From assembly GCA_004010535.1 (NCBI GenBank), contig RQYE01000003.1, positions 62,001 through 126,000 of the forward strand: a stretch of 64,000 nucleotides of DNA, given 5' to 3'. Every line of letters begins with the position of its first letter. Position 1 is the first letter of the stretch. Both the position numbers and the translations under genes were made by a program. Under the pieces are notes generated by a model. The model ran no database searches. It was given only the letters and a program-made list of their open reading frames with translations, and was not told the DNA's origin. The DNA comes from Coriobacteriales bacterium OH1046 (GTDB lineage: Bacteria > Actinomycetota > Coriobacteriia > Coriobacteriales > Atopobiaceae). Shown here one piece after another: positions 34,139 to 36,940 of the stretch.

Positions 34139-34228
34139 GTCGGAGTGGCGGAATTGGCAGACGCGCTAGCTTGAGGTGCTAGTGGCCACACAACGGTCGT
34201 GCGGGTTCAAGTCCCGCCTCCGACACCA
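34139..34228 (+). tRNA. tRNA-Leu (GAG)
   Basis: A 90-nt class II tRNA. Acceptor GTCGGAG pairs with CTCCGAC, discriminator A and an encoded CCA. Anticodon stem CTAGC/GCTAG with loop TTGAGGT gives anticodon GAG; a long variable arm and the T-loop GGTTCAAGTCC are present. A TATGCT -10-like element (34122) lies just upstream. Confidence 0.95.
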
Positions 34229-34235
34229 GACGAAC

Positions 34236-34271
34236 AAAACGCGAACCCACCGTTGGGTTCGCGTTTTTTAT
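34236..34271 (+). terminator. Rho-independent terminator after tRNA-Leu
   Basis: A 14-bp stem AAAACGCGAACCCA / TGGGTTCGCGTTTT with loop CCGT, running into a T-rich tail (TTTTTTAT). Confidence 0.88.
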
Positions 34272-34315: not shown

Positions 34316-36148
34316 ATGGCCGCATCGCCATACGATGCCGATCGCATCCGCGAGCTCGAGTCGCAGCTCGCCCAGCTTGCCCGTGCGAACAAGCGTCTCT
34401 CGGGCGCGCTCTCCATCGTGCTCGAGACGCTCGACTCAGAGAACGTGGCCACGCTCTTCGATCGTGTCCTCGACCGACTCACCAGCACCTTCGGCGCAGA
34501 CGGCACATTGGTTTACTTCGCTGCTGCGGATGGCTTCCATCTGCGTGGCGCAACCGAGTCGCTGCGTGCCGCCAGCATTCCCGGATTCATGGGGTTCGGC
34601 CGCGCTATCGAGACCCTCGCTGCACATGAGGGGCATGCCCTGCGCCTCAAGGTCAACCCGCCGAATGCGGAAGCCCTGCGCACCGGCACCCTCACCGAGC
34701 GCGAGGTCACGCGTGAGGATACCCGCGAGACCTATGCGATCGAAGCGGGCCTCCTGCCCCCGTTCACCTCGTTCATCTGCGTGCCGGTGTGGTTCGGCGG
34801 CCATGTCATCTCCATCATCGAGGTTGGCTGGCGCCGTGCGCATGTCATGCTCGAGGACGATGCCCTCCTGCTCGATGCGGTCGCACGCTATCTCGCGGTC
34901 CAGCTCATAGGCGCCTTCACGGCTATGCGCACACAGCATGCCGACAGGCTCCTGCGGCTGGGGAGCGAGCTGCGCGAGAAACTCATGTCGGTTACCGAGG
35001 GTGACAATCTCGGAGTCCTCGAGAACCTCGAGGAGATCTGGCAGCGTGCTGCAGACGGTCTTGCCGCGCACCTTCTCCCTGTCCACGAGAATTCCCATCA
35101 GGGACATGCCCTGCTCGAGCTTCCGGGAGACGATGCACGCACCCTGCCCTGCGGCTTGGATCGTCTGACCGAGAAGCATCGCCAGGAAAATGTCGCACTC
35201 GTCCTCATCGAAGAGGATTCCGAGCTGGGTATCTGGCTTGCCGACCAAGGCGAGCCCGCTGTCGGGGCGCTCGTGGATCTGGGCGCCGTCAACGGCGCTC
35301 GGCGCAGCTTCATGCTCCTGCGTCCTCAGGGTGCCGAGCCCTTCGATAGCGATGAGCGGGCCTTCATCATGCGCTTGGCGCAGGATTCCTATGAGATCGC
35401 CCTCGGCGAGGTCGCCCGCGAACAGGACAAGCGCATCGCCCAAGCCCTCATGAGCGGCATGAAGAGCGAGCTCCAGACCGTGGAGGGCATCTCCGCGCGC
35501 GGCATCTATTCCTCTGCGACGGCATCCGCCTTCGTCGGCGGCGACTTCTACGACCTCATCCGCCTGCCCGAGCGGCGCGCCTGCGTCATCATGGGCGATG
35601 TTTCGGGCAAGGGCGTGGAAGCTGCGTCCGTCTCCGCAGCGGTGCGCACGGCGCTCGGTGCCTATGCGTGGGAGGGACGTTCCCCCGCGCGCATGGTGCG
35701 CACCTTGAATGACTTCCTCTTGGGTTTCTCGCGCATAGAGACCTTCGCGACGCTCTTCGTGGGTCTGATCGATCTTAAGACGGGCACGCTTACCTACTGT
35801 TCGGCAGGCCATCCTCCTGCACTCTTCGTACACGCGGGCGTGCTCTCCACGCTCGATGTGCAGTCGGGCGTGGTGGGCGCCTTCGCGGACATCTCCTATC
35901 GCGATGGCATGCAGGTGCTCGACGAGGACGATCTGCTTCTGCTCTACACCGACGGCACGACCGAGGCGCGGAGCAAGAGGGGGGACTTCTTCGGCGAGGA
36001 TGGCTTGGCGGATGCGGTCATGGCGGAGATTCCCTGCGGCTTCAACGGGCTGCTCGACCGCCTGCTGGGAAGGCTCGACGCCTTCACCGAGCAGAACCTC
36101 GAGGACGATGTGGCCCTCGTCGCGCTCCGCTTCGACAAAATAGGCTAA
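34316..36148 (+). CDS. GAF-domain PP2C/SpoIIE-type serine phosphatase
   Basis: A 610-residue cytoplasmic protein. After a short N-terminal coiled coil (RIRELESQLAQLARANKRL) comes a GAF-like sensor (~45-200), a second weakly conserved sensor-like region (~240-380), and a C-terminal SpoIIE/PP2C phosphatase (~400-610). The phosphatase shows metal-site motifs FVGGDFYDLIRL, VIMGDVSGKGVEAASV, YCSAGHPPALFV and LLLLYTDGTTEARS. Such phosphatases dephosphorylate STAS-domain anti-anti-sigma factors. The next gene encodes a STAS-kinase fusion 42 bases downstream, its likely substrate. The ATG at 34316 has GGGAGGGGAGGG upstream. Signal sensed is unknown. Confidence 0.9.
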   Translation: MAASPYDADRIRELESQLAQLARANKRLSGALSIVLETLDSENVATLFDRVLDRLTSTFGADGTLVYFAAADGFHLRGATESLRAASIPGFMGFGRAIETLAAHEGHALRLKVNPPNAEALRTGTLTEREVTREDTRETYAIEAGLLPPFTSFICVPVWFGGHVISIIEVGWRRAHVMLEDDALLLDAVARYLAVQLIGAFTAMRTQHADRLLRLGSELREKLMSVTEGDNLGVLENLEEIWQRAADGLAAHLLPVHENSHQGHALLELPGDDARTLPCGLDRLTEKHRQENVALVLIEEDSELGIWLADQGEPAVGALVDLGAVNGARRSFMLLRPQGAEPFDSDERAFIMRLAQDSYEIALGEVAREQDKRIAQALMSGMKSELQTVEGISARGIYSSATASAFVGGDFYDLIRLPERRACVIMGDVSGKGVEAASVSAAVRTALGAYAWEGRSPARMVRTLNDFLLGFSRIETFATLFVGLIDLKTGTLTYCSAGHPPALFVHAGVLSTLDVQSGVVGAFADISYRDGMQVLDEDDLLLLYTDGTTEARSKRGDFFGEDGLADAVMAEIPCGFNGLLDRLLGRLDAFTEQNLEDDVALVALRFDKIG

Positions 36149-36190
36149 ATTACCTGCTTAAACCTGTCGCTACGTGGGAACAATCCCTAT

Positions 36191-36940
36191 ATGCCCGAGA
36201 CTGCCCGCATAGCCGTACTGCCCCTCGAATCCGACCTCGATGCGAGTTCGGCCGACCATGTCCGCAGCGAGATCGAGCGGCTTATCGATGGGGGATGCAG
36301 GCGCATCATCCTGAGCATGGCCAACGCTTCCCATATCGATTCCTACGGTATGGGGATGCTCTTCTTCGAGCTCAGACACATGCGTCAGCTGGGCGGGCTC
36401 ATCTCGCTCACAAGCGTATCTCCCGAGGTCTACCGTGCCTTGAAGATCCTGAGGCTGGTCGATATCATGCCCGTCTCCGAGGCGGGCGCGCATACGGATA
36501 TCCCAGCTCTCGCTGTCGGGCAGGCTCCGCTTTGGCACGCTTCGTTCCCGGTTGCGCCCGACGCCCTTGCTGCGGCGCGCAACCGTATCGAAGAGCTCAT
36601 CTCATCTCTCGATCTCCGTGCCGACGAGGTGTTCGATCTCAAGCTCGCCGCCGGGGAGGCGCTGGGAAACGCTATCGATCACACGTGCGCGCAGGGCGTG
36701 CTGGCAAGCGTCGCCGCATTCTCCGACCGCGTGATCATCGAGGTGAGCGATTGCGGCGAGGGTTTCTGTCCCGATGATGTGGGAGCTCCCTCGCCATCAT
36801 CCGAACGCGGTCGCGGCATCGCCCTTATGAGGCTGCTCGCCGATGCGGTGTCCATTGCGCCCAAACCCGGTGGCACGGGCATGGTCGTGCGTATCGTCAA
36901 GCAGTATTCCCCTGTCGGCAGGGACCTCAGACGCAGTTAG
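36191..36940 (+). CDS. STAS-domain/anti-sigma kinase fusion (RsbV-RsbW-like)
   Basis: A 249-residue fusion of two partner-switching proteins. Residues 1-105 are a STAS domain with the phosphorylatable serine context NASHIDSYGMGMLFFELR. Residues ~118-249 are a GHKL/RsbW-type ATPase: N-box LAAGEALGNAIDHTCAQG, VSDCGEGFCPDD (G1 box) and GRGIALMRLLADAV (G2 box). Normally the kinase phosphorylates a separate STAS protein and otherwise binds a sigma factor. No sigma-B/F-type gene is nearby, so the output is unknown. The PP2C phosphatase immediately upstream completes a cycle. Confidence 0.85.
   Translation: MPETARIAVLPLESDLDASSADHVRSEIERLIDGGCRRIILSMANASHIDSYGMGMLFFELRHMRQLGGLISLTSVSPEVYRALKILRLVDIMPVSEAGAHTDIPALAVGQAPLWHASFPVAPDALAAARNRIEELISSLDLRADEVFDLKLAAGEALGNAIDHTCAQGVLASVAAFSDRVIIEVSDCGEGFCPDDVGAPSPSSERGRGIALMRLLADAVSIAPKPGGTGMVVRIVKQYSPVGRDLRRS

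What the first reader, a model, noticed from the sequence alone, without database searches (positions are those of the whole stretch)
34316..36940. Two-gene partner-switching module with kinase fused to its own STAS substrate
A GAF-PP2C phosphatase is followed by a protein that fuses a STAS anti-anti-sigma domain, with its phosphorylatable serine, to an RsbW-type kinase. Usually these are separate so that they can exchange partners. A fused pair implies intramolecular phosphorylation and a different output, as no sigma factor gene is adjacent.
Basis: partly seen in the sequence, partly recalled or inferred. Interest (0 to 1): 0.6.

Follow-up and report, generated by a model that had tools for sequence, protein, structure and literature searches.

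The report
Stress-switch kinase fused to its substrate
In a class of mostly gut actinobacteria, a stress-signalling kinase is permanently fused to a copy of the small protein it modifies, and it probably works on an ordinary stress switch whose other parts, including a seemingly kinase-dead inhibitor, are encoded elsewhere in the genome.

Summary
A GAF-PP2C phosphatase gene (34316-36148) is followed after 42 nt by a STAS-RsbW fusion gene (36191-36940). The fusion is fixed in much of the class: 195 of 296 sampled genomes, and 90 of 90 aligned copies keep the phosphorylatable Ser and all kinase motifs. Outside the class, 17 of 17 full-length hits examined are adjacent separate rsbV-rsbW genes, so a fused operon is the likely origin.

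"Different output, no sigma adjacent" does not hold. The same genome encodes, unlinked, one SigB/F-type sigma, one free RsbV, and directly upstream of sigB an RsbW relative that lost the N-box Asn (55 of 55 loci). Fusion and sigma agree in 287 of 296 genomes. Most likely this is a dispersed SigB partner switch with divided labour: a kinase-dead anti-sigma holds SigB, free RsbV releases it, the STAS-kinase phosphorylates RsbV (and probably itself), and the PP2C reverses that.

Precedents: SipA of Actinoplanes (same architecture), Rv1364c, and RsbW1/RsbW2 of M. smegmatis. Verdict: new variant of a known kind. Activity, partners and direction of phosphorylation are inferred, not shown.

The parts
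34316..36148 (+). GAF-PP2C (SpoIIE/RsbU-type) phosphatase, 610 aa; GAF about 34448-34906, PP2C about 35570-36133
36191..36940 (+). STAS-RsbW fusion (STAS-kinase), 249 aa
   Evidence: AlphaFold2 mean pLDDT 89.1, pTM 0.77
36194..36478 (+). STAS (RsbV/SpoIIAA-like) domain, residues 2-96
   Evidence: PF01740 1.8e-16; PDB SpoIIAA 3.2e-20 with the ortholog profile
36341..36343 (+). codon of Ser51, the predicted phosphorylation site (D50-S51)
   Evidence: D50 and S51 in 90 of 90 orthologues; in a second, named set of 69 rows S 67, T 2
36479..36544 (+). inter-domain linker of nearly fixed length, with conserved P113 and W115
   Evidence: 20-24 residues in 90 of 90, 22 in 68; W115 in 84 of 90
36545..36901 (+). 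HATPase_c_2 (RsbW/SpoIIAB-like) kinase domain; N box E156/N160, G1 D187-G191, G2 G207-G209
   Evidence: PF13581 2.5e-18; E156, N160, D187, G189, G191, G207, R208, G209 invariant in 90 of 90
34139..34228 (+). tRNA-Leu(gag) just upstream, followed by what reads as an intrinsic terminator hairpin (about 34239-34269), so the pair is probably its own transcription unit
   Evidence: tRNA; hairpin read by eye, not scored by a tool

Best explanation
This is the input half of a dispersed SigB/SigF-type partner switch with divided labour. The STAS-RsbW fusion is the dedicated switch kinase. It phosphorylates the free RsbV encoded beside the tat genes, and probably Ser51 of its own STAS domain. RsbV-P cannot bind the anti-sigma. 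A separate kinase-dead RsbW relative, encoded directly upstream of sigB, holds SigB. When the GAF domain of the phosphatase senses its signal, the PP2C removes phosphate from RsbV (and the fused STAS), RsbV binds the dead RsbW, and SigB is released. Within the kinase, the unphosphorylated fused STAS may occupy the active site in cis and brake the kinase. Shown here: gene content, motifs, co-occurrence, and conserved gene order at each of the separate loci. Inferred: all activities, bindings and directions.
For: 1. Fusion: Ser and all kinase motifs invariant in 90 of 90. 2. It is the only RsbW-type kinase found in its genome: one full-length PF13581 hit at 8.6e-19; the five others match only part of the model inside 351-540 aa frames. 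Only one other STAS exists, a 104-aa RsbV-like protein with DSTGIG. 3. One SigB/F/G sigma. 4. Across the same 296 genomes: both 191, fusion only 4, sigma only 5, neither 96. 5. Free RsbV at E<=1e-17 in all 132 genomes of the three families of the order with the fusion. 6. RsbW-fold protein directly upstream of, usually overlapping, sigB in 55 of 55 sigma loci, with N-box Glu 55/55 but Asn 0/55. It matches PDB RsbW at 2.1e-12 and M. tuberculosis UsfX at 0.006, and NCBIfam RsbW models in 44 of 44. It is present in 11 of 38 chosen genomes, exactly those with the sigma. 7. M. smegmatis precedent: RsbW1 binds SigF without kinase activity on RsfB, RsbW2 phosphorylates RsfB without binding SigF (PMC7693655 passages). 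8. PP2C directly upstream of the fusion in most loci.
Against: No activity or binding was tested. Nine of 296 genomes disagree. G130 (98% complete, 2 contigs) keeps fusion and RsbV but lacks the sigma and the dead RsbW; G291 has sigma and RsbV but no fusion found. Genomes are related, so the Fisher P (6e-66) overstates the evidence; presence/absence follows families and I counted no independent losses on a tree. Inside the class the fusion was not found next to sigB: no sigma hit in the fusion loci, no fusion hit in the sigma loci. Chance motif matches (D.G.G, G.G) occur in 2 of 55 dead-RsbW sequences each. hhalign between the dead RsbW and the fusion kinase gives only 92.6% probability, and the member from this genome alone is weak (PF13581 0.039). 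Whether the fused STAS is phosphorylated in cis or trans is open.
Confidence: 0.6

Rival explanations
1. Classical RsbW role: the fusion's RsbW domain itself binds and inhibits SigB as well as phosphorylating STAS proteins; the RsbW-like protein in the sigB operon is auxiliary.
For: The kinase domain belongs to the RsbW/SpoIIAB fold, members of which bind sigma. Fusion and sigma co-occur in 191 genomes. Rv1364c, with a related kinase domain (3ke6, 2.1e-6), is reported to bind SigF in vitro.
Against: Another RsbW-fold protein is joined to sigB in 55 of 55 loci and tracks the sigma in 38 of 38 chosen genomes. In M. smegmatis the motif-intact kinase RsbW2 does not bind SigF.
Confidence: 0.17
2. 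SipA-like clamp: the two fused domains form a constitutive cis complex, and the RsbW domain sequesters another STAS-bearing partner by binding, with little or no kinase switching.
For: SipA of A. missouriensis has the same order and size (243 aa, STAS 6-103, RsbW-like 158-239); its domains bind each other and its RsbW domain binds the STAS of sigma SsdA (PMC10733313). The linker here has nearly fixed length.
Against: Here Ser51 and every kinase motif are invariant, and a PP2C is directly upstream in most loci, which a binding-only clamp does not need. No sigma-STAS fusion was seen in this genome: the only other STAS hit is the 104-aa protein.
Confidence: 0.13
3. Private circuit: kinase, fused STAS and PP2C act on a target unrelated to SigB.
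For: No sigma gene in the fusion loci searched. Partner switches with non-sigma outputs are known (SypA/SypE, seen as titles and abstracts). G130 keeps the fusion without the sigma.
Against: Joint presence or absence with the sigma in 287 of 296 genomes and, in a chosen 38, joint loss of the dead RsbW with the sigma; a free RsbV kept in 132 of 132.
Confidence: 0.1

Closest known systems
SipA of Actinoplanes missouriensis (PMC10733313; sections 6, 8, 9 and 14 read)
   Same: Small protein with N-terminal STAS and C-terminal RsbW-like domain (243 against 249 aa), in the same order.
   Different: SipA works with a sigma that carries its own STAS domain. Its authors report orthologues only in Micromonosporaceae and one Nonomuraea; no PP2C partner or phosphorylation of SipA came up in the sections read or the term search. 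Here the sigma is separate, a PP2C gene is adjacent, a free RsbV and a kinase-dead RsbW exist, and the fusion is spread through another class. SipA's sequence was not compared here.
Rv1364c of Mycobacterium tuberculosis (passages in PMC10950880, PMC7693655, PMC12143880)
   Same: Kinase and STAS substrate in one chain together with a PP2C; reported to auto(de)phosphorylate its STAS serine; the kinase domain is detectably related to this one (3ke6, 2.1e-6).
   Different: There the order is PAS-PP2C-kinase-STAS in one protein. Here phosphatase and kinase are separate genes and STAS precedes the kinase.
RsbW1/RsbW2 of M. smegmatis (PMC7693655 passages)
   Same: Division of labour between a kinase-less anti-sigma encoded with the sigma gene and a remote kinase for the free anti-anti-sigma.
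   Different: RsbW2 is an unfused 148-aa protein in an operon with rsfB. Here the kinase carries its own STAS domain and the free RsbV lies elsewhere.
RsbV-RsbW-SigB of Bacillus subtilis
   Same: Same domain families; the rsbV-like, rsbW-like, sigB order is seen in one related genome (L117).
   Different: In B. subtilis one RsbW is both kinase and anti-sigma (stated in PMC7693655). Here the roles appear split and the kinase is fused.

Membership tests
RsbW/SpoIIAB switch-kinase family | GHKL fold with N, G1 and G2 boxes | tested here: met
   PF13581 over cut-off; motifs invariant 90/90; Foldseek SpoIIAB 6.7e-08, RsbW 7.6e-08, UsfX 1.2e-07
RsbW/SpoIIAB switch-kinase family | Phosphorylates a STAS protein | not testable with these tools
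   needs a kinase assay
RsbW/SpoIIAB switch-kinase family | Binds a cognate sigma factor | not testable with these tools
   only co-occurrence tested; no sigma hit in the fusion loci
RsbV/SpoIIAA anti-anti-sigma (STAS) | STAS fold with phosphorylatable Ser/Thr in the DSxG-type loop | tested here: met
   PF01740, TIGR00377 over cut-off; S 90/90; S 67 and T 2 of 69
SipA-type STAS-RsbW fusion | N-STAS, C-RsbW in one ~245-aa chain | tested here: met
   SipA description
SipA-type STAS-RsbW fusion | Cognate sigma with its own C-terminal STAS domain | tested here: not met
   only two STAS domains in the genome: the fusion and a 104-aa protein; the SigB-type sigma has no STAS
Rv1364c-type single-chain regulator | Sensor, PP2C, kinase and STAS in one chain, STAS last | tested here: not met
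   two genes, STAS first
M. smegmatis-type divided partner switch | Anti-sigma gene beside the sigma gene, lacking kinase motifs | tested here: met
   RsbW-fold gene upstream of sigB in 55/55; Asn lost 55/55; E[ASG]..N in 0/55
M. smegmatis-type divided partner switch | The separate kinase, not the anti-sigma, phosphorylates the free RsbV | not testable with these tools
   needs an in vitro assay

The most novel reading that the evidence does not exclude
The fused STAS is a built-in brake. When the co-encoded PP2C dephosphorylates Ser51, the STAS domain closes over its own kinase and stops phosphorylation of free RsbV. The phosphatase would then control the switch by turning off the kinase rather than only by erasing its product, within a class-wide three-way split of the RsbW functions (dead anti-sigma, fused kinase, free RsbV).
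Probability: 0.3. Interest if true: 0.65.

Novelty: new variant of a known kind. Interest (0 to 1): 0.45.

Why it matters
Partner switching is usually taught as separate proteins that trade partners. A fusion held across a bacterial class, with the free substrate also kept and the sigma-linked RsbW apparently stripped of kinase function, would show how kinase and anti-sigma roles come apart, and offers a small two-gene system for testing cis regulation of a switch kinase. It also proposes how a SigB-type stress response may be wired in gut and oral Coriobacteriia, on which my literature searches found no paper (open-licence PubMed Central only).

Tried and rejected
1. Fusion as the only RsbW in the genome, hence the direct anti-sigma: my first model, dropped when an RsbW-fold protein was found joined to sigB. 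The PF13581 search of the own genome had not listed it; on its own it scores only 0.039 against that model.
2. Fusion widespread in the phylum: one search listed full-length hits outside the class; 17 were fetched and all 17 are two adjacent genes read through a stop, so rejected. More divergent fusions such as SipA would fall below the E<=1e-10 limit.
3. Chance match at G000:C16: no RsbW-like ORF there.
4. A longer phosphatase start at 34199 overlaps tRNA-Leu; 34316 is preferred, as in the two nearest relatives that align from residue 1.
6. Plasmid search: 8 records, none above 40% identity; two regions viewed added nothing.
7. Taxon names of the unnamed families (f1 Atopobiaceae-like, f2 Eggerthellaceae-like, f3 Collinsella-like) are my inference from the named loci and general knowledge.

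Full report
What is in the window. Two ORFs on the + strand match the finding exactly. P0001 (34316-36148) is a GAF-PP2C phosphatase; P0002 (36191-36940), 42 nt downstream, has an N-terminal STAS domain and a C-terminal HATPase_c_2 domain. A tRNA-Leu lies just upstream and is followed by what reads as a terminator hairpin (by eye), so the pair is probably its own unit. NCBIfam places the halves with anti-sigma factor antagonists (TIGR00377, over its cut-off) and with SpoIIAB/RsbW (below their equivalog cut-offs). The nearest named relatives are uncultured actinobacterial and coriobacterial bins, then Olsenella and Atopobium species.

The fusion is real, old and intact. Of 296 genomes drawn from the class, 201 match P0002 at E<=0.001; at a stricter 1e-19 I count 195: 78 of 79 in the own family, 52 of 52 and 1 of 1 in two others of the order, none of 81 in the remaining three families of the order, and 64 of 83 elsewhere in the class. 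Ninety orthologues were aligned. Asp50 and Ser51, the N-box Glu156 and Asn160, the G1 residues Asp187, Gly189 and Gly191, and the G2 residues Gly207, Arg208 and Gly209 are each identical in 90 of 90. In a second set of 69 rows (the window plus 68 of the 80 named loci; 12 left out as truncated, over-long or near-duplicate), position 51 is Ser in 67 and Thr in 2. The linker is 20-24 residues long in all 90, 22 in 68. The AlphaFold2 model is confident (pLDDT 89.1, pTM 0.77); Foldseek matches SpoIIAB, RsbW and UsfX to one half and SpoIIAA-type proteins to the other. Its two top hits, chains of entry 9qih (response regulator LvrC; named SenB), align over both halves only at rmsd near 20, so they are not the same arrangement.

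Where the fusion came from. A phylum-wide search of 396 genomes gave apparent full-length hits outside the class, most with a stop inside. I fetched 17. All 17 are two neighbouring genes in the same order, STAS then RsbW, almost touching, with a DS[ST]GL loop in all 17 STAS proteins. The simplest reading is that an rsbV-rsbW operon lost the stop between its genes near the base of this class. Not all of those 17 RsbW proteins keep the N-box Asn (14 of 17).

The sigma factor exists, but elsewhere. The own genome holds four sigma-70 region-2 proteins. One, P0003, is a SigB/SigF/SigG-family sigma (TIGR02980, 280 bits against a cut-off of 234). Only two STAS domains pass in the genome: the fusion and P0004, a 104-aa free RsbV with the loop YIDSTGIG, lying between a TPR-type gene and what reads as tatA. 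Searching the same 296 genomes for P0003 gives a clean split between true hits (E<1e-40) and primary-sigma cross-hits (weaker than 1e-28). Fusion and sigma are both present in 191, both absent in 96, fusion alone in 4 (G061, G121, G125, G130) and sigma alone in 5 (G017, G085, G107, G151, G291; the first four have a weak or partial fusion match). Free RsbV at E<=1e-17 is present in all 132 genomes of the three fusion-bearing families of the order. In 20 fetched RsbV loci the D-S pair is present in 20 of 20, though one of these (L279, 261 aa) is probably a fusion itself.

A second, apparently kinase-dead RsbW is joined to sigB. Inspecting the sigma loci showed a 117-aa ORF 1 nt upstream of sigB in the own genome. 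A profile of such ORFs finds one directly upstream of, and usually overlapping, sigB in 55 of 55 sigma loci; 53 fall within 250 nt by longest ORF, and the other two overlap further, probably because of an over-long sigma ORF. By sequence it is an RsbW relative: PDB RsbW 6m36 at 2.1e-12 and M. tuberculosis UsfX at 0.006, NCBIfam RsbW models in 44 of 44 members, PF13581 in 39 of 44 at E<=0.1, hhalign probability 92.6% against the fusion. The alignment A2 used for these holds 44 of the 55. The N-box Glu is kept in 55 of 55, but the Asn is replaced by Tyr, Phe, Leu or Trp in 55 of 55. Regular-expression forms of G1 and G2 occur in 2 of 55 each, against 90 of 90 in the fusion. In one distant genome (L117) the order is STAS, dead RsbW, sigB, the classical operon order. 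In 38 genomes that I chose, the dead RsbW is found in the 11 that have the sigma and in none of the 27 that lack it.

How it most likely works. The parts fit a divided partner switch: dead RsbW as SigB-binding anti-sigma, free RsbV as the exchangeable antagonist, the STAS-kinase as the kinase, and the GAF-PP2C as the signal-responsive phosphatase. The same division is demonstrated in M. smegmatis, where RsbW1 binds SigF and does not phosphorylate RsfB, while RsbW2, with intact N, G1 and G2 motifs, phosphorylates RsfB and does not bind SigF (PMC7693655, passages). What the fused STAS adds is open. Rv1364c is reported to phosphorylate and dephosphorylate its own STAS serine (PMC10950880, passages), so self-phosphorylation is plausible. 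In SipA the N-terminal STAS binds the C-terminal RsbW domain (PMC10733313). I therefore favour a cis brake or self-reporter role, since a free RsbV is always kept to act on the anti-sigma. This step is inference.

Against this reading. G130, nearly complete in two contigs, keeps fusion and RsbV without sigma or dead RsbW, so either the loss is recent or the fusion has a further role. The families that lack the system are blocks of related genomes, so the co-occurrence has fewer independent events than genomes. The fusion was not seen beside sigB in any locus I searched. Kinase death of the upstream RsbW is judged from motifs only.

Novelty. The architecture was reported in 2023 for SipA, whose authors knew of no similar protein and placed its orthologues in Micromonosporaceae and one Nonomuraea. 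Finding it fixed in a different class, with intact kinase and serine, an adjacent PP2C gene and a kinase-dead anti-sigma at sigB, is new as far as my ten searches of an open-licence library show. Whether SipA and this fusion share one fusion event was not tested. I file it as a new variant of a known kind.

Noticed in passing
L019:6732-7085 (-), own genome C1, and 54 other sigma loci: An RsbW-fold protein without the N-box Asn is joined to a SigB-type sigma gene in 55 of 55 loci. It may deserve its own study as a kinase-dead anti-sigma family.
   Followed up: partly
L018:5979-6293 (-) and loci L263-L282: The free RsbV gene lies beside a tatA-like gene in 19 of 20 loci and beside a TPR-type gene in 15 of 20. 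A stress-switch gene in a protein-export operon is unexplained.
   Followed up: partly
window 34316-34448 compared with L147-L222: Most relatives' phosphatases have about 125-190 extra N-terminal residues with weak PAS similarity. The window species and its nearest relatives (610 aa) lack them, which suggests loss of one sensor domain.
   Followed up: partly
L053-L071 (more distant families of the class): There the upstream phosphatase ORFs are mostly about 930-1170 aa (shorter where the contig is cut); one, in L057, has HAMP and tandem GAF domains, so the input looks much richer.
   Followed up: no
genome G130: Keeps the fusion and has four STAS-protein matches but has lost SigB and the dead RsbW: a natural test of whether the fusion has another output.
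   Followed up: no
L022 (own genome C4:19500-29500): A second PP2C-type phosphatase (matched by PF07228, reads as PrpC-like) with FHA-domain-like genes, and a Hanks-type kinase ORF at the other end of the fetched stretch; this reads as a separate Ser/Thr signalling cluster (names by eye).
   Followed up: no
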